From assembly GCF_002278035.1 (NCBI RefSeq), contig NZ_CP022603.1, forward strand, positions 372,001 through 436,000: DNA of 64,000 nt, read 5' to 3'. This stretch comes from Ochrobactrum quorumnocens. Its GTDB lineage: Bacteria; Pseudomonadota; Alphaproteobacteria; Rhizobiales; Rhizobiaceae. Below are positions 4,360 to 46,424 of this stretch, one piece after another. Both the position numbers and the translations under genes were made by a program. Position 1 is the first letter of the stretch. Every line of letters starts with the position of its first letter. The notes under the pieces were generated by a model, which had not been told where the DNA came from, did not search any database, and saw only the letters and a program-made list of their open reading frames with translations.

Positions 4360-4484
4360 AAAAACAAGAAAGCCCGCTGCACTGGGAGGAGGAGTGTGCA
4401 ACGGGCTGATCTGTAAAGCGCGACTGGGAGGAGGAGTGCCGCGCTTCGCGTTCAGTTTCTGGGAGGAGGAGTGAAACTGAACAA
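4360..4484 (-). ncRNA. Small RNA of alpha-r14/NfeR1 type with three anti-Shine-Dalgarno hairpin loops
   Basis: On the minus strand three hairpins follow each other, at 4450-4482, 4416-4446 and 4372-4406. Stems are 9-11 bp with different sequences, but all three have the identical 13-nt loop ACUCCUCCUCCCA. Stem irregularities that would be A-C mismatches on the plus strand become G-U pairs on the minus strand, which sets the orientation. The last hairpin is followed by UUUCUUGUUUUU and acts as an intrinsic terminator. A sigma-70-like promoter (4489-4517) predicts a start near 4484, so the RNA is about 125 nt. Repeated CCUCCUCCC loops are the hallmark of the alpha-r14 family (S. meliloti NfeR1), trans-acting RNAs that pair with ribosome binding sites. 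Family assignment is from memory of this feature. Confidence 0.8.
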
Positions 4485-4488
4485 GCCC

Positions 4489-4517
4489 AAAATAGGAGCG
4501 AGGCCCGCCACTTACAA
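4489..4517 (-). promoter_or_regulatory. Predicted promoter of the alpha-r14-like small RNA
   Basis: Minus-strand TTGTAA (4512-4517) and TATTTT (4489-4494) are separated by exactly 17 bp, about 5 bp before the predicted RNA start. The match to the sigma-70 consensus is moderate, but the position relative to the first hairpin is right. Confidence 0.55.
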
Positions 4518-4558
4518 GAGGCGATGCTGCAAGGCAGTTATGCATTTATGAATAGCTC

Positions 4559-4651
4559 AAAAAAAGAGACCGCCCCGCAGCGATAAACGCGCTGGGGCGG
4601 CTCGATCCTCCTCCAAGTGGAGCCGACAATAACCGCAAGCGATCAAAAAGC
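4559..4651 (-). ncRNA. Candidate second small RNA carrying GGAGGAGG, with intrinsic terminator
   Basis: On the minus strand a GC-rich hairpin (CCGCCCC 4570-4576 pairing GGGGCGG 4594-4600, with extra inner pairs) is followed after four bases by seven Us (4565-4559), a good intrinsic terminator. Just upstream, CGGCUC (4625-4620) and GAGCCG (4603-4598) can form an alternative hairpin whose loop exposes GGAGGAGG. TATAAA at 4663-4658 is a candidate -10 box, giving a transcript of about 92 nt starting near 4651. No start codon follows GGAGGAGG at a usable distance, so it does not look like a ribosome binding site. The octamer is perfectly complementary to the loops of the neighbouring small RNA. 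Existence and function are inferences. Confidence 0.5.
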
Positions 4652-4675
4652 AACCCCTTTATATTCAGCTCTAAT

Positions 4676-4693
4676 TTTCAGAAATTACTGAAA
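4676..4693. promoter_or_regulatory. 18-bp operator-like palindrome, identical to the site before the GbsR-like gene
   Basis: TTTCAGAAATTACTGAAA, an inverted repeat with 6-bp arms TTTCAG/CTGAAA. Its reverse complement, with two flanking bases, is identical over 20 bp to 40724-40743, directly upstream of the GbsR/MarR-like regulator. Here it covers the -35 area of the predicted second small RNA on the minus strand. It lies about 240 bp upstream of the bhuA promoter, so the small RNA is the more likely target. Confidence 0.6.
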
Positions 4694-4930
4694 TTAATGT
4701 ACATTTAAGTGTTGATGCAAAATAGCTACCAAGCTTTAATTACAACGTCTTCATTCCCCAACTTACATAGTGTAATTATTTCACCGTTCTGCAAAAAATT
4801 ACACTATTTGACATCAGATATGACTTAACTCGGCAAACTTAACGCTGTATTCTTTAATCGATTAAAGCCACGCAATGCCTCACATTTCACAACCTGCGCG
4901 CACCCCTTATCCCCATTCATATAATTAAAG

Positions 4931-4986: not shown

Positions 4987-5026
4987 TCTTAGTGGCATGG
5001 CGGTGAAGGCCAATTCGGGGGTTGCA

Positions 5027-7141
5027 ATGAAAATGAAGTCGAGACTTGGCAGCTATCTGTTGGAAACAACAGTTTTAAGTGGAGCAATTGGTTTAAGTCT
5101 CCTGATTGCGATGCCCGCTTTTGGGCAGACTGCTCAGAATCAGAAGACAGCTGAGGAAAGACAGCAAGCTCAAAAGAAAGAGCAGGCACTTCAGCTCGAT
5201 ACAATCACCATTTCACCCAATATTCAGAACCAGGCCGCTATTGATGCGATGGCATCAACGAGTGTCATCACGCAGCAGCAGCTGGATCGCATTCAGGCAA
5301 CTACTGCCGCTGATATTTTCCGTTCGACACCAGGTGTCCATGCCTCTTTGAATGGTGATGATCCGGCGACATCCATCAATATTCGCGGCCTTCAGGAATA
5401 TGGCCGTGTCGCAGTAACGATTGACGGCGCACGTCAGGACTATTGGCGCGTCGGTCACGGCTCAGGTTCATTCTATATTGACCCGGAAATGCTCAAACAG
5501 GTAACGGTTATTCGCGGGCCTGTTTCCAATGCCTATGGTTCTGGGGGTATCGGCGGTCTTGTCGCCTTTGAAACCAAAGATGCCGGCGATTTCCTGCGCG
5601 ACGACGAAACCTGGGCGTTGAGCGAAAAGCTGCGTTACGAAAGTAACGGAAACGGTTGGATGACCAGCACGGTTGGCGCCTATCGCTTAAACCCAAATTT
5701 CGATGTCATTGGCAATATCAACTATCGTGATAGTGATGCCTATAAGAATGGCGATGGCGATGTTGTCCGCTGGACAGGAGAACGCGTCGTCAGCGGTCTG
5801 GGCAAAGTTACGATCCGCCCGGCCGATGGTCACGAAGTAAAACTCGGTTTCCAGCGCCAGAAATATAACGACATCATGACAGGCAGCAGCGGATCAACAT
5901 CCAGCACATTGTCGCGTTATAATGCCGAAACGATCGTCAGCACCTATACCGGCAACTACACCTATAAGCCTGACGATAATCCGTTTTGGGACCTGTCGGT
6001 TAATGCCTATTACAGCGACACCGACAATGATCAGTATCAGGTTTGGCCAAAGGCCAGTATCGGCAAGACGCGTTATTACGACGTTTCGACAGCCGGTTTC
6101 CGCGCCTATAACAGCTCGCGCTTTGAAACGACGACCATGAGCCATACGCTTACCTATGGCGTTGATTATTATAAGATGCGCGGAAAATCCGACACCGACA
6201 ACTTCGGCAACGGTGAACAGCAGGCTTATGGCGGTGTTATTCAATGGCAGGGCGATTATCAGAAGTGGCTCGAGCTGATCGGTGCTCTCCGTTACGATGG
6301 CTATCGTCTCGACGGCACGACCAAGGCCACCAATGTCCTGCCTTCGGAAGACGTCAGCGTTGATGGCAATCGCGTTTCTCCGCGTTTCAGCGTCGGTGTG
6401 ACACCGTGGGATGGCGTTCAGTTCTACGGCCTTTATTCGCAGGGTTATCGTGTTCCCCACATGCAAGATATGTTCAGGCAGAACGGAGCGCACGGTTCGG
6501 GATATGAACCGAACCTGCTCTTGAAGCCTGAAGTCGCAACCTCTTATGAATTCGGTGTCAATCTTCGCCAGGACGGCATTCTGGATGCAGGCGATCAGGT
6601 CCGCGCCAAGCTCAACTTCTTCCATACAGACGTCAAGAATTACATCAACACCGTCAAGACCGGCAACGTGACGACATCTGAGAATGTCGGCGATGCACGT
6701 CTGCGCGGGGTTGAGCTTGAAGGCACCTATGACAACTGGTGGGGCTACGTGAACCTCGCAGCTTCTTACACCGACGCGGAAATGAAGGATGGTGTCTACA
6801 AAGGCGAAAGCCTAAGCAACACACCGCTCAACAACCTTAGTGCAACGCTCGGCCTTAAGGCGTTTGACGAAAAGCTCGTCTACGGTGTCGAATATGAAAG
6901 TGTGGGCAAGGTCAATCGCGCGCTTACAACAGGCGGCGTCAAAGTCTATCCGCGCGTGGATCTCGTAAATGTCTTCGCCAACTGGCAGGTTACGGACAAT
7001 GTGAAGCTCGACTTCGGCGTCGATAACCTCTTCAACAAAGCCTATACCGATGCACAGACTGGCTGGGCTACCAGCACGGATATCGAACAGGCAAAGGGGC
7101 GTACCTTTATGGTCGCCATCACCGGTCGCATCGGCGGATAA
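5027..7141 (+). CDS. bhuA: TonB-dependent heme receptor, BhuA-like
   Basis: Outer-membrane receptor for heme uptake, about 704 residues. It has a signal peptide (ETTVLSGAIGLSLLIAMPAFG then QTAQ), a TonB-box-like LDTITISP, and a plug domain (STSVITQQQLDRIQATTAADI... and VTVIRGPVSNAYGSGGIGG). A 22-strand barrel follows and ends in the receptor C-terminus RTFMVAITGRIGG. The FRAP/NPNL region of heme receptors appears in altered form as MFRQNG...YEPNLLLKPE near residue 490. The ATG at 5027 follows GGGGG at a workable distance, while the upstream ATG at 4997 has no ribosome binding site. It is preceded by two IRO boxes and followed by other iron genes. No heme permease or ATPase genes lie beside it. 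Confidence 0.88.
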   Translation: MKMKSRLGSYLLETTVLSGAIGLSLLIAMPAFGQTAQNQKTAEERQQAQKKEQALQLDTITISPNIQNQAAIDAMASTSVITQQQLDRIQATTAADIFRSTPGVHASLNGDDPATSINIRGLQEYGRVAVTIDGARQDYWRVGHGSGSFYIDPEMLKQVTVIRGPVSNAYGSGGIGGLVAFETKDAGDFLRDDETWALSEKLRYESNGNGWMTSTVGAYRLNPNFDVIGNINYRDSDAYKNGDGDVVRWTGERVVSGLGKVTIRPADGHEVKLGFQRQKYNDIMTGSSGSTSSTLSRYNAETIVSTYTGNYTYKPDDNPFWDLSVNAYYSDTDNDQYQVWPKASIGKTRYYDVSTAGFRAYNSSRFETTTMSHTLTYGVDYYKMRGKSDTDNFGNGEQQAYGGVIQWQGDYQKWLELIGALRYDGYRLDGTTKATNVLPSEDVSVDGNRVSPRFSVGVTPWDGVQFYGLYSQGYRVPHMQDMFRQNGAHGSGYEPNLLLKPEVATSYEFGVNLRQDGILDAGDQVRAKLNFFHTDVKNYINTVKTGNVTTSENVGDARLRGVELEGTYDNWWGYVNLAASYTDAEMKDGVYKGESLSNTPLNNLSATLGLKAFDEKLVYGVEYESVGKVNRALTTGGVKVYPRVDLVNVFANWQVTDNVKLDFGVDNLFNKAYTDAQTGWATSTDIEQAKGRTFMVAITGRIGG

Positions 7142-21633: not shown

Positions 21634-21666
21634 TTGTCAGCGCGCATCAGTTTGAGTAGAAGTAGC

Positions 21667-21751
21667 GTCACATCAAGAGTTGGGGCGACGCCCAACGCCA
21701 ACCTGCCTTTCCGGGCAAGGTGGTACTTCCTTAAAAAAGGAAGGATGTGGC
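21667..21751 (+). promoter_or_regulatory. SAM-I-clan riboswitch (SAM-I or SAM-I/IV variant) of metA
   Basis: P1 is formed by GTCACATC (21667-21674) and GATGTGGC (21744-21751). Inside are the conserved AAGAG after P1, a short P2 (GTTGGG/CCCAAC), P3 with GCCAACCTGCC and GGGCAAGGTGGT, and P4 (CTTCCTT/AAGGAAG). The AUCAAGAG, CAACC and GCAAGGU elements match the S-box core. P2 is short and seems to lack the internal kink-turn, which fits the I/IV variant. A P3-loop TCCG could pair with CGGA at 21767-21770, as in SAM-IV. It would turn metA off when S-adenosylmethionine is plentiful. Confidence 0.75.
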
Positions 21752-21780
21752 CAACCGGCAAGTATACGGATAAAGCCACG

Positions 21781-40606: not shown

Positions 40607-40725
40607 TGGTTGGAAGCATCGGCTTGAGGCATTTGGAGGAGTGCTGAAGGCTGCGGCCAATTGTCCATATGCACCTTGCATCCAGACATGCGGATTGAAG
40701 GTTGAGGCCATTTGAATTATCTGAA

Positions 40726-40743
40726 TTTCAGTAATTTCTGAAA
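40726..40743. promoter_or_regulatory. 18-bp operator-like palindrome before the GbsR-like gene
   Basis: TTTCAGTAATTTCTGAAA, 6-bp arms, 25 bp upstream of the TTG start. Over 20 bp (40724-40743) it is identical to the reverse complement of 4676-4695. A further half-site-like TTCAGAATTT follows at 40745. Position and symmetry suggest autoregulation by the downstream regulator. Confidence 0.65.
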
Positions 40744-40768: not shown

Positions 40769-41353
40769 TTGGAATTATCGCCAATTGTTCAGTCGTTTGT
40801 ACTCCACTTCGGAGAGATGGGTAGTCGCTGGGGTATCAATCGTACGGTTGGACAGATTTATGCGCTGCTCTATTTATCGTCTGAACCCTTGTGTGCGGAC
40901 GATATCGTTGATGCGCTTGGTGTTTCGCGCTCCAACGTTTCGATGGGCATCCGCGAGTTGCAGGGCTGGAATCTTGTGCTGTTAAAGCACATACCCGGTG
41001 ATCGTCGCGACTTTTTCACGACGCCGGGCGATGTATGGGTGATTTTGCGAACGCTTGCCGAAGAGCGCAAGAAGCGCGAGATCGACCCAACCCTTACAGT
41101 TCTGCGCGAAGTCCTGATGGAACAGCCGCAGGACGCCGGCGATCAATATGCGCAAGACCGCATGAAGGACATGTACGCGCTCATCGAGCGGCTAACCAAC
41201 TGGTACGACGACGTCAAGAAACTCGATACCGACAGATTGACCAGCCTGCTGGCGCTTGGCGCCAAGGTTACCCGCTTTCTGGAGACGACCGACAGGATCG
41301 TGGCTCTGGGAAGGGGTAGAACATCGGCCAAAAAGGAGCCTAAGCGAGAGTGA
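40769..41353 (+). CDS. GbsR/MarR-like winged-helix transcriptional regulator
   Basis: 194 residues. The winged helix spans residues ~20-90: TVGQIYALLYLSSEPLCADDIVDALGVSRSNVSMGIRELQGW, then a wing with HIPGDRRDFFTTPGD. A long helical C-terminal part probably serves dimerisation. This resembles the GbsR branch of MarR proteins, known in Bacillus as repressors of glycine-betaine genes, but here it leads the cytochrome bd operon. The start is TTG at 40769 with GGGAGAG upstream. Its stop overlaps the cydD start (GTGA), so it is co-translated with cydD. Ligand unknown. Confidence 0.88.
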   Translation: MELSPIVQSFVLHFGEMGSRWGINRTVGQIYALLYLSSEPLCADDIVDALGVSRSNVSMGIRELQGWNLVLLKHIPGDRRDFFTTPGDVWVILRTLAEERKKREIDPTLTVLREVLMEQPQDAGDQYAQDRMKDMYALIERLTNWYDDVKKLDTDRLTSLLALGAKVTRFLETTDRIVALGRGRTSAKKEPKRE

Positions 41354-43083
41354 AACCCGTTGCCCCCCGAACGGAAGAAGCGGCACGACAAGACGGCGAA
41401 ACCTCTGGCGACAAACGTCGTCCGCGTCCAGTTCCGTCTCTGCTACAAACGGGGGCAAGGTTTCAAGCTGTGGCAGCACTTTTATGGCTGCCACAGGCTG
41501 CACTTCTCGCCTATGGCGTAGGCTATCTCGCTAATACAGGCTTTGATGCCACAATCTATTATCTTGCTGCGGGACTATTTCTTATAGGCTGTGTGCGTAA
41601 TCTTCTGGACGCACATGGCGCGAAAAAGGCGTTCGATGCAGCCAGAAGTGAGTTGGCCAAGCTACGAGAAAAAGCTGTAACGGCGTTATCGCACCGCTCT
41701 CCCCTTGATACGTCCCGTCCGTCTTCCGGAGAAGCTGCAAGCATACTCGCTGAACAGGCTGAGATGATTGTCCCCTATCTCTCTCGCTTTTTACCAGTTC
41801 GCATTCGAGTTATGCTCGTGCCACTGGCAATCCTTGTCGTCGTGTTTTGGTTTTCCTGGATAGCAGCAACGATCCTGCTGATAGCAGCACCTTTGATCCC
41901 GATTTTCATGGCGCTCATTGGCTGGCGTGCAAAAGCTGCCAGTGAAAAGCAACTCATTGCGTTGGGCGACATGAACGGTTTTCTGCTTGATCGTCTGCGT
42001 GGGCTTGCAACAATTCGCAGCTTTAATGCTGTCGATATGACCGCGACACGTCTCCGTGATAATGCCGAGACACTACGCAGCAAGACAATGATTGTTCTGC
42101 GTATAGCCTTCCTGTCATCTGCCGTTCTGGAGCTCTTCGCGGCCCTTGGCGTTGCTATGGTGGCGGTTTACATCGGCTTTCATCTGCTCGGACCTTTAGG
42201 TTTTGGTGCTTGGGGACATAAGCTAAGCCTCGCTGAAGGCTTGTTTATTCTCTTGCTTGCCCCCGCATTCTTTGAACCTCTGCGCGATCTCTCCGCCGTT
42301 TGGCATGACAGGGCATCTGGCGAAGCCGCCATTGATGCGCTCGAAGAACTTTCAATGCACGAAATGCCTGTGGTTGGTGGCATTACTGCTGTGAAGAAAG
42401 TCGAGAACGCGCCTTCGCTGATGCTTCGGAATGTCCGCTTTCGGTATTGCACTGGTGAGGATGTCTTCAGCGGTTTTAATCTCGATATTGAATCGGGAGA
42501 GCACGTGGCACTTCTCGCCCCTAGCGGTTATGGCAAGTCGACATTGCTTGCTTTGATTGCTGGATTGGCGGCACCACAGGAAGGTGAAATCCGGATTGGT
42601 GGTGTTACGCTTCAAAATGAAACGGCTGCAACCCTGCGTACAAGAATGCGATGGGTTGGCCAGAAGCCCCATATTTTTGCAGGCAGCGCCCGACACAATA
42701 TAACTCTTGGTCGCGATGCCGGTGTCGAGAAGACCGCGTCTATCATCGACCAGATGGCCTTGAGCCATGTGGCAGGCATTACCGGAGCCGGAGTAATCGG
42801 CGAAAATGGTGCCGGGCTTTCCGGTGGTGAAGCACTTCGATTGGCCTTAGCGCGGATCGCTGTTGATCAAGACGCCGATATCATTCTCGCTGACGAGCCA
42901 ACGGCACATCTTGACCATGAAACAGCGGATCGCATCGCTGATACTCTGATCAGTCTTGCCAAGGGCAAGACGCTCATCATTTCAACACATGATGAGACGC
43001 TCGCAAGCCGTATGGATCGCGTGGTTCGGCTCAATGATTTGAGTGGCAATGGGCAAATCTGGCAGAAAAGGGCAGCAGAATGA
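41350..43083 (+). CDS. cydD: Cysteine/glutathione ABC exporter subunit CydD
   Basis: 577 residues. Six membrane helices, then an ATPase domain with Walker A APSGYGKST near residue 395, signature LSGGEALRLAL and Walker B ADIILADEPTAHLD. With CydC it forms a heterodimer that exports thiols (and binds heme) to the periplasm, needed for assembly of cytochrome bd. The start is GTG at 41350, overlapping the regulator; its end overlaps cydC by 4 bp. Confidence 0.92.
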   Translation: MKPVAPRTEEAARQDGETSGDKRRPRPVPSLLQTGARFQAVAALLWLPQAALLAYGVGYLANTGFDATIYYLAAGLFLIGCVRNLLDAHGAKKAFDAARSELAKLREKAVTALSHRSPLDTSRPSSGEAASILAEQAEMIVPYLSRFLPVRIRVMLVPLAILVVVFWFSWIAATILLIAAPLIPIFMALIGWRAKAASEKQLIALGDMNGFLLDRLRGLATIRSFNAVDMTATRLRDNAETLRSKTMIVLRIAFLSSAVLELFAALGVAMVAVYIGFHLLGPLGFGAWGHKLSLAEGLFILLLAPAFFEPLRDLSAVWHDRASGEAAIDALEELSMHEMPVVGGITAVKKVENAPSLMLRNVRFRYCTGEDVFSGFNLDIESGEHVALLAPSGYGKSTLLALIAGLAAPQEGEIRIGGVTLQNETAATLRTRMRWVGQKPHIFAGSARHNITLGRDAGVEKTASIIDQMALSHVAGITGAGVIGENGAGLSGGEALRLALARIAVDQDADIILADEPTAHLDHETADRIADTLISLAKGKTLIISTHDETLASRMDRVVRLNDLSGNGQIWQKRAAE

Positions 43084-44762
43084 AGGGACTTCAATCGCTC
43101 GGCCCGATCCTGCAGCTTTTCTTCCGCACAAAAGCGTTGATGCTTTATGTGGGCATTGCAGCCGCAACAGCAACGGTTCTCGCGGGCATCGCGCTGCTCG
43201 GGCTTTCCGGTTGGTTTATTACAGCCACTGCTATTGCCGGTTTAAGTGTTGCAACTGCCGTAGTTTTCGATGTTTTTGCGCCAGCTGCCGGTATTCGACT
43301 TCTGGCAATTTTACGTACAGGCGCGCGCTATCTGGAGCGTCTTGTAACGCATGATGCGACGCTCGCCATTCTCGCAGCGCTACGCGAAAAGCTGTTCCGC
43401 AGCTGGGCCCGCCCGGCAGCGGCCAGTGCATTGCTCAAACGACCAGCACGGCTTCTATTCAGACTGACTGCTGATATCGATGCACTTGATTCACTTTATC
43501 TGCGCGTCCTTGTGCCAGCAGGGGCAGCTCTCGTAACAGCGCTCATCACTGGTGTGGCGCTTGGTCTGATGTATCCGCTTTTTGGTTTGATCATTGCGTT
43601 GACGTTGCTTTTTATCGGACTGGGACTGCCACTTATTGCGGCTAAACGGGCTGAAAAGCCAATGCGCCAGCGCGCCAAAGGCACTGAAGCATTGCGTGCG
43701 CGGACGGTCGATCTGGTCGCAGGTCAAACTGAACTCATAATGGCTGGGCGCATGAACAGTCAGAATGCAAGCATCATGCGGGCCGATAGCTACATCGCAT
43801 CAAGCGACCGCGTTCTCAACCGCATTGAAATTTCGACCGGTGCTGGTCTTGGCATTCTTCATGCTGGCCTACTGGCGGGCGGACTGATCGGTGTCGGGTT
43901 ACTCATGCAAGCTGGATTGATCAATGCCCCGGTAGCGGCGCTCGGATTGCTTATCATCCTTGGCGCGATGGAGCCATTTGCAGCACTGCGCCGTGGTGCA
44001 ATGGAACTCGGCCGCACAATACTCGCTGCGCGCCGCGTCGCTCCCGCACTTGAAGCACCGGACAACATCCAAACGCTGGCGGCGCCTGCAAAAGGCTATG
44101 CCGTGAACCTGGAACATGTCACCGTTCGCCATGAAAGTGTTGTAGCAAAAGCTCTTGATACGGTTGATCTGAACATCTTTACAGGCGAACGCTTGGCGAT
44201 CATCGGCACCAGTGGCGCTGGTAAGTCTACTCTTTTCAATGTGCTGGCTGGCGAGATCAATGCCGAGGACGGCAATGTCCGAGTTTTGCCAGCACGACTT
44301 CTGACGCAGCGAACTGAGCTGTTCAAAGACAGTCTTCGTAACAATCTCAAGCTCGCGAAGTCAGATGCAAGCGATGCGGAGTTAAACGCCGCATTAGAAG
44401 CCGCCGGTCTAGGCGACTTCATGGACGCCCAGACCGAGGGAATGGATACGGTTTTGGGCGAGGGGGGACTTGGGCTCTCTGGTGGTCAGGCCAGACGCCT
44501 TGCTTTGGCCCGACTGTTCCTGACCGATTCTCCTTTATGGCTCCTTGATGAGCCCACTGAAGGGCTCGATCAGGCAACTGCCGAGGATGTGCTTTGCCGC
44601 CTCAGTGAACAGGCCAAGGGCCGTACTTTATTGATCGCGACGCATATTCAACGCGAAGCACGCATTTGTGATCGTGCAATTGTTTTGGATCAAGGCGCGC
44701 TCGTTCATTCGATGACCAAAGGAGAACCCTCTTTCGACAAAGCCCTCAAATCTTTGAGGTGA
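43080..44762 (+). CDS. cydC: Cysteine/glutathione ABC exporter subunit CydC
   Basis: 560 residues, partner of CydD. Six helices (GIALLGLSGWFITATAIAGL is typical of CydC), Walker A GTSGAGKST near residue 380, signature LSGGQARRLAL, Walker B LWLLDEPTEGLD, and the H-loop in IATHIQREARICD. Followed after 84 bp by cydA. Confidence 0.92.
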   Translation: MKGLQSLGPILQLFFRTKALMLYVGIAAATATVLAGIALLGLSGWFITATAIAGLSVATAVVFDVFAPAAGIRLLAILRTGARYLERLVTHDATLAILAALREKLFRSWARPAAASALLKRPARLLFRLTADIDALDSLYLRVLVPAGAALVTALITGVALGLMYPLFGLIIALTLLFIGLGLPLIAAKRAEKPMRQRAKGTEALRARTVDLVAGQTELIMAGRMNSQNASIMRADSYIASSDRVLNRIEISTGAGLGILHAGLLAGGLIGVGLLMQAGLINAPVAALGLLIILGAMEPFAALRRGAMELGRTILAARRVAPALEAPDNIQTLAAPAKGYAVNLEHVTVRHESVVAKALDTVDLNIFTGERLAIIGTSGAGKSTLFNVLAGEINAEDGNVRVLPARLLTQRTELFKDSLRNNLKLAKSDASDAELNAALEAAGLGDFMDAQTEGMDTVLGEGGLGLSGGQARRLALARLFLTDSPLWLLDEPTEGLDQATAEDVLCRLSEQAKGRTLLIATHIQREARICDRAIVLDQGALVHSMTKGEPSFDKALKSLR

Positions 44763-44846: not shown

Positions 44847-46424
44847 ATGGAATTCGATATTGTCTCCCTGTCGAGATTGCAGTTTGCAATTACGGCACTT
44901 TATCACTTCCTCTTCGTACCTCTGACATTGGGTCTGTCCGTGCTGCTTGCCATCATGGAAACCGTTTATGTCATGACCGGAAGGCTCATCTGGCGGCAGA
45001 TGACCAAATTCTGGGGTACGCTGTTTGGTATCAACTTCGTTATGGGCGTCGCGACCGGCGTTGTGATGGAGTTTCAGTTCGGCATGAACTGGAGCTATTA
45101 CAGCCATTATGTCGGCGACATATTCGGAGCGCCGCTTGCTATTGAAGGCATGATGGCCTTCTTCCTTGAAGCAACCTTCGTTGGCCTGTTCTTCTTTGGC
45201 TGGGATCGTCTGTCCAAGGTCGGTCACCTCATGGCGACCTATGCGGTCGCAGCCGGGTCAAACTTCTCCGCGCTATGGATTCTGATCGCCAACGGTTGGA
45301 TGCAAAACCCGGTTGGTTCAGCATTCAATCCCGAAACGATGCGTATGGAGATCACCGACTTCTTTGCGGTTCTGATGAACCCGGTGGCGCAGGCGAAATT
45401 CGTACACACCGTTTCGGCTGGCTATGTAACGGCTTCGATTTTTGTACTCGGCGTTTCTGCCTGGTATCTGTTGAAGGGTCGCTCCACCGAGCTCGCCAAG
45501 CGGTCGATGACTGTTGCGGCGTCGTTTGGTCTCGCGGCTTCTCTTTCAGTGGTCGTTCTGGGCGACGAAAGCGGTTATCTCGCCAATGAACATCAGAAGA
45601 TGAAAATCGCGGCCATCGAAGCCATGTGGGAAACAGAGCCGGCTCCGGCTTCATTCACTGTCTTCGGCTTTCCAAATCAGGAAGCACGTGAAACCCATTA
45701 TGCCGTGCATATTCCTTGGGTCATGGGTCTGATTGGTACACGCTCGCTGACAACACCAATCGAAGGCATTGAGCAGCTCGTCGAAAATGCGCAGGGCCAT
45801 ATCCGTAAGGGTATCATCGCTTATGATGCGCTTCAGAAAATCCGTGCTGCAGGCGATACAAGCGTTGTGCCGCAGGACGTCAAGGATGTATTCGCCGATA
45901 ATAGCCAATGGATGGGTTATGCGCTGCTTCTGAAGCGCTATGTCGATGATCCGCGTCAAGCAACTGATGCGCAAATCGCGCAGGCGGCCAATGACACCGT
46001 TCCGGGCGTATTGCCCTTGTTCTGGGCGTTCCGCATCATGGTCGGCATCGGCTTCTTCTTGATCCTGTTGACCGGCACATTCTTCGTGCTGTCTGCGCGG
46101 CGCAAGCTGGATCGCCATCCATTCCTGCTCAAAGTTGCAGTCTTTGCCATTCCACTGCCATGGATCGCTGCGGAAATGGGCTGGATTGTCGCTGAGTTCG
46201 GACGACAGCCTTGGATTATTGAAGGTATTCTGCCAACAGCGGTTGCCGTCTCCAATCTTGGTGCCTCGACGGTTCTTTTGACGATCGTCGGATTTGTAGC
46301 GATCTACACAGTCCTGTTCATCATCGAAATGGGCCTGATGTTGCGCGCGATCAAAGCCGGGCCTGAACCCGACAGCAAACCAGAAGCAAAGCTTGCACCT
46401 GTAAGCATTGCGCCAGCGGAGTAA
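44847..46424 (+). CDS. cydA: Cytochrome bd ubiquinol oxidase subunit I
   Basis: 525 residues, nine helices. Heme ligands are recognisable: His20 (ITALYHFLFVPLTLG, heme b595), a His near 186 (KFVHTVSAGYV) and a later Met. The region between ~255 and 390, with GFPNQEARETHYAVHIPWVMGL and a long following stretch, indicates the long Q-loop as in E. coli. This terminal oxidase has high oxygen affinity and resists nitric oxide and peroxide. Confidence 0.95.
   Translation: MEFDIVSLSRLQFAITALYHFLFVPLTLGLSVLLAIMETVYVMTGRLIWRQMTKFWGTLFGINFVMGVATGVVMEFQFGMNWSYYSHYVGDIFGAPLAIEGMMAFFLEATFVGLFFFGWDRLSKVGHLMATYAVAAGSNFSALWILIANGWMQNPVGSAFNPETMRMEITDFFAVLMNPVAQAKFVHTVSAGYVTASIFVLGVSAWYLLKGRSTELAKRSMTVAASFGLAASLSVVVLGDESGYLANEHQKMKIAAIEAMWETEPAPASFTVFGFPNQEARETHYAVHIPWVMGLIGTRSLTTPIEGIEQLVENAQGHIRKGIIAYDALQKIRAAGDTSVVPQDVKDVFADNSQWMGYALLLKRYVDDPRQATDAQIAQAANDTVPGVLPLFWAFRIMVGIGFFLILLTGTFFVLSARRKLDRHPFLLKVAVFAIPLPWIAAEMGWIVAEFGRQPWIIEGILPTAVAVSNLGASTVLLTIVGFVAIYTVLFIIEMGLMLRAIKAGPEPDSKPEAKLAPVSIAPAE

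What the first reader, a model, noticed from the sequence alone, without database searches (positions are those of the whole stretch)
4674..4697. Same 20-bp palindromic site at the small-RNA locus and at the GbsR-like/cyd promoter
Positions 4676-4695 (reverse complement) and 40724-40743 are identical: AATTTCAGTAATTTCTGAAA. An 18-bp symmetric site shared by chance between two intergenic regions of a 64-kb window is very unlikely. One copy is 25 bp before a winged-helix regulator gene that leads the cytochrome bd operon, and the other covers the -35 area of the candidate decoy RNA. This suggests a regulon linking respiration, a GbsR-type sensor (osmolyte or other ligand) and a small RNA.
Basis: partly seen in the sequence, partly recalled or inferred. 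Interest (0 to 1): 0.8.

Follow-up and report, generated by a model that had tools for sequence, protein, structure and literature searches.

The report
Oxidase repressor site beside small RNA
The DNA site that controls a bacterium's emergency oxygen-using enzyme also sits, at a fixed distance, in front of a tiny RNA gene whose sequence looks built to soak up a neighbouring family of regulatory RNAs, which would tie respiration to RNA control.

Summary
In detail: the 20-mer AATTTCAGTAATTTCTGAAA occurs at 40724-40743 and, inverted, at 4676-4695. In the 5.65-Mb genome TTTCAGNAATTNCTGAAA has exactly these two perfect copies. The cyd copy is known biology: the operator of CydE, a GbsR-type repressor. 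The Alishewanella CydE footprint holds the same 18-bp core, and 80 of 80 fetched relatives carry the site (70 exact, 10 one mismatch). The new part is the other copy. It lies upstream of a predicted ~59-nt RNA (4618-4560, minus) next to the sRNA ar14. Of 35 genus genomes, 29 have this RNA, and all 29 keep the palindrome (12 exact, 16 one mismatch, 1 two) 21-22 bp before its -35 box, while the DNA around it has diverged. The RNA's 5' end ACUUGGAGGAG can pair with ar14's CCUCCUCCC loops, suggesting an sRNA sponge like Caulobacter CrfA. Binding, direction of regulation, transcription and sponging are inferred. Osmolyte sensing is not supported.

The parts
4676..4693 (-). CydE-type operator (TTTCAGTAATTTCTGAAA on the minus strand) upstream of the small-RNA promoter; the stretch identical to the cyd copy extends to 4676-4695
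   Evidence: kept with 0-2 mismatches in 29 of 29 loci that have the RNA
4648..4653 (-). putative -35 TTGCTT of the small RNA
   Evidence: 100% pairwise identity over 29 loci (the script required TTGCTT, and all 29 had it); alignment. Sub-consensus: the promoter scan found none
4626..4631 (-). putative -10 TATTGT of the small RNA
   Evidence: 98% pairwise identity over 29 loci for the 7-base block that holds it; alignment
4560..4618 (-). short RNA ('decoy1'), about 59 nt, 5' ACUUGGAGGAG then an intrinsic terminator; both ends inferred
   Evidence: terminator-like site; fold
4606..4618 (-). ACUUGGAGGAGGA, complementary to the CCUCCUCCC loops of ar14
   Evidence: -19.5 to -20.8 kcal/mol with the three ar14 loops
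4570..4600 (-). terminator hairpin of decoy1, followed by a T run
4490..4518 (-). putative ar14 promoter (-35 CTTGTA 4518-4513, -10 CTATTT 4495-4490)
   Evidence: read from the alignment
4367..4489 (-). ar14 sRNA (RF02344) with three hairpins, each with a CCUCCUCCC loop
   Evidence: Rfam 83.8 bits, gathering score 58.8; fold
40695..40723 (+). putative cyd promoter: -35 TTGAAG 40695-40700, 17-bp spacer, -10 TATCTG 40718-40723
   Evidence: alignment of 15 loci: TTGAAG in 12 of 15, TATCTG in 14 of 15
40726..40743 (+). CydE operator at the cyd promoter, overlapping the expected +1; outer arms CTGAA/TTCAG extend it
   Evidence: same core as the footprinted Alishewanella site
40769..41353 (+). CydE-type (GbsR/MarR) regulator
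   Evidence: PF12802; solved relative MJ223 1ku9; found in 34 of 35 genus genomes
41350..43083 (+). cydD
   Evidence: TIGR02857 above cut-off
43080..44762 (+). cydC
   Evidence: TIGR02868 above cut-off
44847..46424 (+). cydA, cytochrome bd subunit I
   Evidence: PF01654
46430..47584 (+). cydB, cytochrome bd subunit II
   Evidence: PF02322, TIGR00203

Best explanation
Both copies are operators of CydE, the GbsR/MarR-type regulator encoded at 40769. At cyd the operator overlaps the start of transcription, so CydE represses its own operon (cydE-cydDCAB), as shown for the Alishewanella protein. At 4676 the same operator is phased about -65 from the start of a ~59-nt RNA, so CydE most likely activates that RNA while it keeps cyd off. 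The RNA's 5' end, ACUUGGAGGAG, pairs with the CCUCCUCCC loops of ar14-type sRNAs (six copies in this genome) and titrates them, as CrfA titrates SisA-D in Caulobacter. When the inducing signal releases CydE, cyd turns on, the sponge turns off and ar14 is set free. Shown here: both sites, their conservation, the phasing, the RNA's promoter and terminator anatomy, and the complementarity. Inferred: CydE binding at 4676, activation rather than repression, transcription of the RNA, and sponging.
For: The operator core TTTCAGAAATTTCTGAAA was footprinted for Alishewanella CydE. The site precedes 80 of 80 fetched cydE relatives (the best 80 of 548; 70 exact, 10 one mismatch) and 34 of 34 cydE genes of the genus (32 exact, 2 one mismatch). 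Of 195 other-genus genomes in the family sample, 19 have an exact site, one each: 18 stand 11-26 bp before cydE and the 19th before a cydA gene. In the genus, 33 of 35 genomes hold 45 exact sites in all: 32 at cydE, 12 at decoy1 and 1 (G026) at an ar15 gene. In all 12 two-site genomes the second site is at decoy1. Decoy1 was found in 29 of 35 genomes, and in 29 of 29 the palindrome is kept, with 22 bp (25) or 21 bp (4) to TTGCTT. Mean pairwise (ungapped) identity is 0.94 in the palindrome, 0.55 in the spacer and 0.37 in the 40-bp stretch beyond. The commonest decoy1 variant, TTTCAGTATTTTCTGAAA (12 loci), is itself the cyd operator of G024; it scores 29.1 bits against a minimum of 26.9 for the 66 training operators. 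The decoy1 5' end pairs with ar14 loops at -19.5 to -20.8 kcal/mol (matched by 1 of 1000 shuffles against loop 1), and with the 16S tail (recalled sequence) at -14.6; a normal Shine-Dalgarno sequence shows the opposite order, -10.0 and -12.5. In at least ten genus genomes a third site (one mismatch) recurs; in the six fetched it lies upstream of a gene that is SCO1/SenC (oxidase assembly) in the four tested by Pfam, and the start region of the other two aligns with it.
Against: No binding or expression data. All four GbsR-type proteins studied up to 2018 are repressors (PMC6207618), and CioR since then too, so activation would be new. 17 of 29 decoy1 operators have one or two mismatches, and the one with two (G004) scores 22.9 bits, below every training operator. 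The outer arms of the cyd operator are missing at decoy1. In the window's own decoy1 the fold predicts that the GGAGGA stretch is partly paired with the U-rich tail (unpaired probability down to about 0.1). Types A and B of the related RNAs lack the CydE site. Decoy1 was not found in 6 of 35 genus genomes. With one mismatch allowed, the genus has 101 sites against 6 for the reversed control; 62 are cyd or decoy1, and of the other 39 at least ten are the recurrent sco type and at least three lie at ar15; most of the rest I did not explain.
Confidence: 0.6

Rival explanations
1. CydE binds both sites but represses the small RNA, so that the RNA and cytochrome bd are induced together.
For: The GbsR-type regulators described in the passages read all repress.
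Against: The site ends 21-22 bp upstream of the -35 and does not occlude it; the spacing is fixed in all 29 loci, and it is the only strongly conserved element seen upstream of a sub-consensus promoter, which fits an activator better.
Confidence: 0.25
2. The 4676 site belongs to another transcription factor with a similar palindrome, for example whatever binds the conserved element TTTCAGAATTTTCCGAAATGGTCAAAAA in front of an ar15 (AbcR-type) sRNA gene.
For: That element lies upstream of ar15 in the genus: of 30 loci, 1 matches the CydE pattern exactly, 1 has one mismatch, 17 two, 6 three and 5 four to six. A LysR-type regulator activates abcR2 in Brucella and the regulator of abcR1 is unknown (PMC9751625, passages).
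Against: Twelve decoy1 sites match the CydE pattern exactly; the ar15 element scores 22.1 bits, below every training operator (minimum 26.9) and near a stray site of the own genome (21.7), while the window site scores 34.7; the TGGTCAAAAA extension is absent at decoy1.
Confidence: 0.12
3. The short RNA does not act on ar14: it is a Shine-Dalgarno mimic acting on ribosomes, or has some other target.
For: GGAGG also pairs with the 16S 3' end (-14.6 kcal/mol, recalled sequence) and with an ar15 loop (-16.9).
Against: Pairing favours the ar14 loops over the 16S tail by about 5-6 kcal/mol and a real Shine-Dalgarno control shows the reverse; the gene sits beside ar14, and two of four type B RNAs upstream of other ar14 copies (L010, L192) carry UCUGGGAGGA, a 10-nt complement of the ar14 loop-1 region.
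Confidence: 0.2
4. The 4676 site controls the divergent gene, a TonB-dependent heme receptor at 4997.
For: Cytochrome bd needs heme (general knowledge); the receptor starts about 300 bp away.
Against: The receptor's start region aligns in 14 of 35 genomes in the listing; in one clade the divergent neighbour is another short RNA. The spacing is fixed to the small-RNA promoter.
Confidence: 0.04
5. Chance or a dispersed repeat.
For: None beyond the shortness of the site.
Against: Two exact copies in 5.65 Mb, zero in the reversed control in 35 of 35 genomes, and the same second locus in 12 of 12 two-site genomes.
Confidence: 0.01

Closest known systems
CydE of Alishewanella sp. WH16-1 (GbsR-type repressor of the cyd operon; PMC6096048, passages read)
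   Same: GbsR-type gene leading a cyd operon; footprinted site TATTTCAGAAATTTCTGAAAGTTCA has the same core, and the GTTCA after it is also present at the window's cyd site
   Different: Here cydDC follow cydE, and a second operator precedes a predicted RNA gene; no sRNA target is mentioned in the passages seen. Alishewanella has a second, unlike CydE site, which I did not look for here
CioR of Chromobacterium violaceum (PMC11837568, passages read)
   Same: GbsR-type direct autorepressor of a cytochrome bd operon
   Different: No operator sequence appeared in the passages seen; no sRNA link there
ar14 / NfeR1 sRNA family (RF02344; PMC10746234, passages read)
   Same: The neighbouring sRNA is an ar14 member with CCUCCUCCC loops
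   Different: NfeR1 in Sinorhizobium is controlled by LsrB and NtrC; no linked anti-ar14 RNA was seen upstream of one ar14 locus in each of 30 other-genus genomes (0 of 30, strict pattern)
CrfA sponge of SisA-D in Caulobacter (PMC12559287, abstract, section 7, part 1 of section 12 and passages read)
   Same: Small RNA with a G/A-rich stretch complementary to an anti-Shine-Dalgarno motif shared by sibling sRNAs
   Different: Targets are the alphaR8 family, not ar14; induced by carbon starvation; its transcriptional regulation is said to remain to be determined

Membership tests
CydE (GbsR-type regulator of cytochrome bd) | MarR/GbsR winged-helix protein | tested here: met
   PF12802 32.2 bits, cut-off 27; MJ223 1ku9 E 2.2e-13; NCBIfam CudC 45.6 bits, below its cut-off of 218
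CydE (GbsR-type regulator of cytochrome bd) | gene leads a cyd operon | tested here: met
   cydD, cydC, cydA, cydB follow on the same strand
CydE (GbsR-type regulator of cytochrome bd) | operator with core TTTCAG-N6-CTGAAA before its own gene | tested here: met
   (sequence identity only)
CydE (GbsR-type regulator of cytochrome bd) | represses cyd; released by sulfate in vitro | not testable with these tools
   operator overlaps the expected +1, which fits
Osmostress GbsR/OpuAR group | gene next to betaine synthesis or Opu transport genes | tested here: not met
   neighbours are mrp and cyd
Osmostress GbsR/OpuAR group | aromatic cage for osmolytes | not tested
   PMC6207618 says Alishewanella CydE lacks the residues
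ar14 sRNA | Rfam model above gathering score, three CCUCCUCCC hairpins | tested here: met
   83.8 bits, gathering score 58.8; fold
sRNA sponge (works like CrfA) | complementary to the seed of a sibling sRNA family | tested here: met
sRNA sponge (works like CrfA) | independent gene with promoter and terminator | tested here: inconclusive
   conserved boxes and terminator; the promoter scan found none; no transcript data
sRNA sponge (works like CrfA) | lowers target sRNA activity in cells | not testable with these tools
   none

The most novel reading that the evidence does not exclude
CydE, known so far as a local repressor, is a dual regulator that activates a genus-specific RNA sponge against the ar14 sRNAs from a -65 site. 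The state of the respiratory chain is thus read out directly as the free amount of an sRNA family, with sco genes (and perhaps the ar15/AbcR gene) as further members of the regulon in some species. It would be the first GbsR-type activator and the first ar14 sponge that I know of.
Probability: 0.35. Interest if true: 0.8.

Novelty: new variant of a known kind. Interest (0 to 1): 0.6.

Why it matters
The ar14 sRNAs are widespread in the family (70 of 71 genomes searched, 65 over the family cut-off), and the ar14 member NfeR1 acts in nitrogen metabolism and symbiosis (PMC10746234, passages). A respiration-linked sponge would give these multi-copy sRNAs an off-switch with a known regulator. It also gives a precise test of whether a GbsR-type protein can activate, because the same operator stands in two different geometries in one genome.

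Tried and rejected
Decoy-type RNAs elsewhere: covariance model R1 over 247 family genomes hit the 5 genus members sampled and one weak hit in another genus (E 0.009; 6 of 247). A strict pattern upstream of one ar14 locus in each of 30 other-genus genomes found 0 of 30; other ar14 copies and laxer forms were not looked at.

A shared operator for all anti-ar14 RNAs was rejected: the related RNAs other than decoy1 have no CydE site (best match 6-8 mismatches in 17 of 17). One type B copy (L174) has its own palindrome TATAATCATAC..GTATGATTATA, only partly kept in L192, so I did not pursue it.

The exact palindrome of genome G026 is not at cydE (its cydE site has one mismatch) but at an ar15 gene. 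Comparison with 29 further loci shows a variant of a longer asymmetric element, so I do not count ar15 as a CydE target.

Rfam has no family at the short RNA: the best match on its strand, 18.6 bits, is far below that family's gathering score of 70. In one search the list of places was cut after G026, so sco-site counts are lower bounds; the middle of the printed alignment was cut. 'Not found in 6 of 35' for decoy1 rests on the genome-wide DNA search and on the stretches scanned; R1 itself was not run over those six whole genomes. I did not predict a structure for CydE.

Full report
Observation. The 20-mer AATTTCAGTAATTTCTGAAA stands at 40724-40743 and, inverted, at 4676-4695. Within the window TTTCAGNAATTNCTGAAA matches only there, even with three mismatches allowed. 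In the whole genome (5.65 Mb) it has exactly two perfect matches. The reversed pattern gives 0 exact matches in 35 of 35 genus genomes.

The cyd copy is known. The gene at 40769 is a MarR/GbsR-type regulator leading cydD, cydC, cydA and cydB. In Alishewanella the GbsR-type repressor CydE was footprinted on TATTTCAGAAATTTCTGAAAGTTCA (PMC6096048, passages), which has the same core and the same GTTCA after it as the cyd site. I fetched 80 loci with relatives of the gene (548 confirmed, the best 80 kept, so the closest ones). All 80 have the site before the gene, 70 exact and 10 with one mismatch, 11-114 bp away. In the genus, 34 of 35 genomes have the gene (in G009 it is split in two pieces); all 34 have the site, 32 exact and 2 with one mismatch. 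An alignment of 15 loci shows a -35 TTGAAG (12 of 15) and a -10 TATCTG (14 of 15) just before the palindrome. The operator therefore covers the expected start of transcription, as a repressor site should.

The other copy is the new part. Rfam places the sRNA ar14 at 4489-4367 on the minus strand (83.8 bits, gathering score 58.8), one of six copies in the genome. Searching the region in the genus and aligning 30 loci showed a second, separate unit between ar14 and the palindrome: palindrome, spacer, TTGCTT, spacer, TATTGT, then ACTTGGAGGAG, a G+C-rich hairpin and a T run. I call this predicted RNA decoy1. It is present in 28 of the 30 loci, one per genome, and in one further genome (L183), so it was found in 29 of 35 genomes. 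The palindrome is kept in 29 of 29: 12 exact, 16 with one mismatch, 1 with two. It ends 22 bp (25 loci) or 21 bp (4 loci) before TTGCTT. Mean pairwise ungapped identity is 0.37 in the 40-bp stretch upstream, 0.94 in the palindrome, 0.55 in the spacer, 1.00 in the -35 (required by the script; all 29 had it) and 0.99 in the 12-base block CACTTGGAGGAG. The loci are related, so the pairs are not independent; but among the 262 pairs whose upstream stretches are less than 40% identical the palindrome is still 0.94 and the spacer 0.51. This is the pattern of a selected site phased to this promoter.

Is it a CydE site? The genus has 45 exact sites in 33 of 35 genomes: 32 at cydE, 12 at decoy1, and 1 (G026) at an ar15 gene. 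In the 12 genomes with two exact sites the second is always at decoy1. In 195 genomes of other genera, 19 have an exact site, one each: 18 before cydE and one before a cydA gene. The commonest decoy1 variant, TTTCAGTATTTTCTGAAA, is the cyd operator itself in G024. With a weight matrix from 66 cydE operators outside the nearest relatives (L026-L091), the window site scores 34.7 bits and this variant 29.1; the lowest training operator scores 26.9. Against: the outer arms of the cyd operator are missing at decoy1, 17 of 29 sites are not exact, and the G004 site scores only 22.9.

Geometry. The predicted start of the RNA is near 4618, so the palindrome is centred near -65. A site at fixed distance upstream of a weak promoter (none found by the consensus scan) suggests activation. 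All four GbsR-type proteins studied by 2018 repress (PMC6207618, passages), so this would be new, and co-repression stays a serious rival.

What the RNA may do. Its 5' end pairs with the three ar14 loops at -19.5, -20.2 and -20.8 kcal/mol, with 9 contiguous pairs; 1 of 1000 shuffles does as well against loop 1. It pairs with the 16S tail (typed from recall) at -14.6, while a standard Shine-Dalgarno control prefers the 16S tail (-12.5 against -10.0). For the full-length RNAs the predicted dimer (-87.8) is 8.6 kcal/mol below the sum of the two alone (-79.2) (all). Related RNAs occur upstream of other ar14 copies; two of four type B RNAs (L010, L192) carry UCUGGGAGGA, complementary to ten bases of the loop-1 region, and the other two carry near forms. 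Against: in the window's sequence the motif can pair with its own U-rich tail. The working model is a sponge, as CrfA is for SisA-D in Caulobacter (PMC12559287, abstract, section 7, part 1 of section 12). I do not call it a CrfA homologue: its predicted target family differs, and I did not compare the two sequences.

Wider regulon. With one mismatch allowed the genus has 101 sites against 6 for the reversed control; 62 are cyd or decoy1. Among the other 39 a third site, TTTCAGAAATTATTGAAA, appears in at least ten genomes (list cut after G026). In the six fetched it lies upstream of a gene that is SCO1/SenC in the 4 tested by Pfam; the start region of the other two aligns with it. In two of the six (L343, L346) extra DNA separates site and gene, so a neighbouring gene could be its target. 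This site was not found in the window's own genome. Most of the remaining one-mismatch sites are unexplained.

Literature. Searches in the held open library listed no paper that I recognised as linking CydE or cyd regulation with ar14 or an anti-ar14 RNA; the search for Brucella, sRNA and ar14 gave 0 papers. I read only abstracts, passages or named sections of the papers cited, and most subscription papers are not held, so this is not proof of absence.

Verdict. The cyd half is ordinary and known. The second operator, conserved and phased to a genus-specific anti-ar14 RNA, is a new variant of known kinds (CydE autoregulation, sRNA sponge). It is well supported as a shared operator and only inferred as a sponge switch.

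Noticed in passing
window 40628-40645 (+): Hairpin GGCATTTGGAGGAGTGCT between the mrp operon and cyd, with GGAG in its loop; the core was found in 30 of 30 genus loci checked (L248-L277) and is complementary to an ar14 loop (-26.8 kcal/mol). Possibly a second anti-ar14 element in the mrp 3' UTR.
   Followed up: partly
L115:1333-1439 and the own genome C2:232715-232732: Conserved promoter element TTTCAGAATTTTCCGAAATGGTCAAAAA upstream of the gcvP-adjacent ar15 (AbcR-type) sRNA in much of the genus; probably the abcR1 type (my inference from the replicon), whose regulator a 2022 review calls unknown. In G026 it is an exact CydE palindrome.
   Followed up: partly
L341-L346: Recurrent CydE-like site (one mismatch) upstream of SCO1/SenC in part of the genus.
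   Followed up: partly
L174, around 1608-1636: Different long palindrome TATAATCATACAGAATTAGTATGATTATA upstream of another anti-ar14-type RNA (type B), centred at about the same distance from its -35 by my count; only partly kept in L192.
   Followed up: partly
L133-L136, L138-L140, L142, L143, L147: In these ten loci a second, divergent anti-ar14-type RNA (type A) faces away from decoy1; in several genomes it has its own ar14 beside it.
   Followed up: partly
window 21665-21775 (+): SAM-I/IV riboswitch (RF01725, 58.4 bits).
   Followed up: no
window 4997-7141 (+): TonB-dependent heme/hemoglobin receptor (TIGR01785, 451.8 bits) beside the small-RNA locus, followed by a siderophore-interacting protein gene and an ABC exporter gene.
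   Followed up: no
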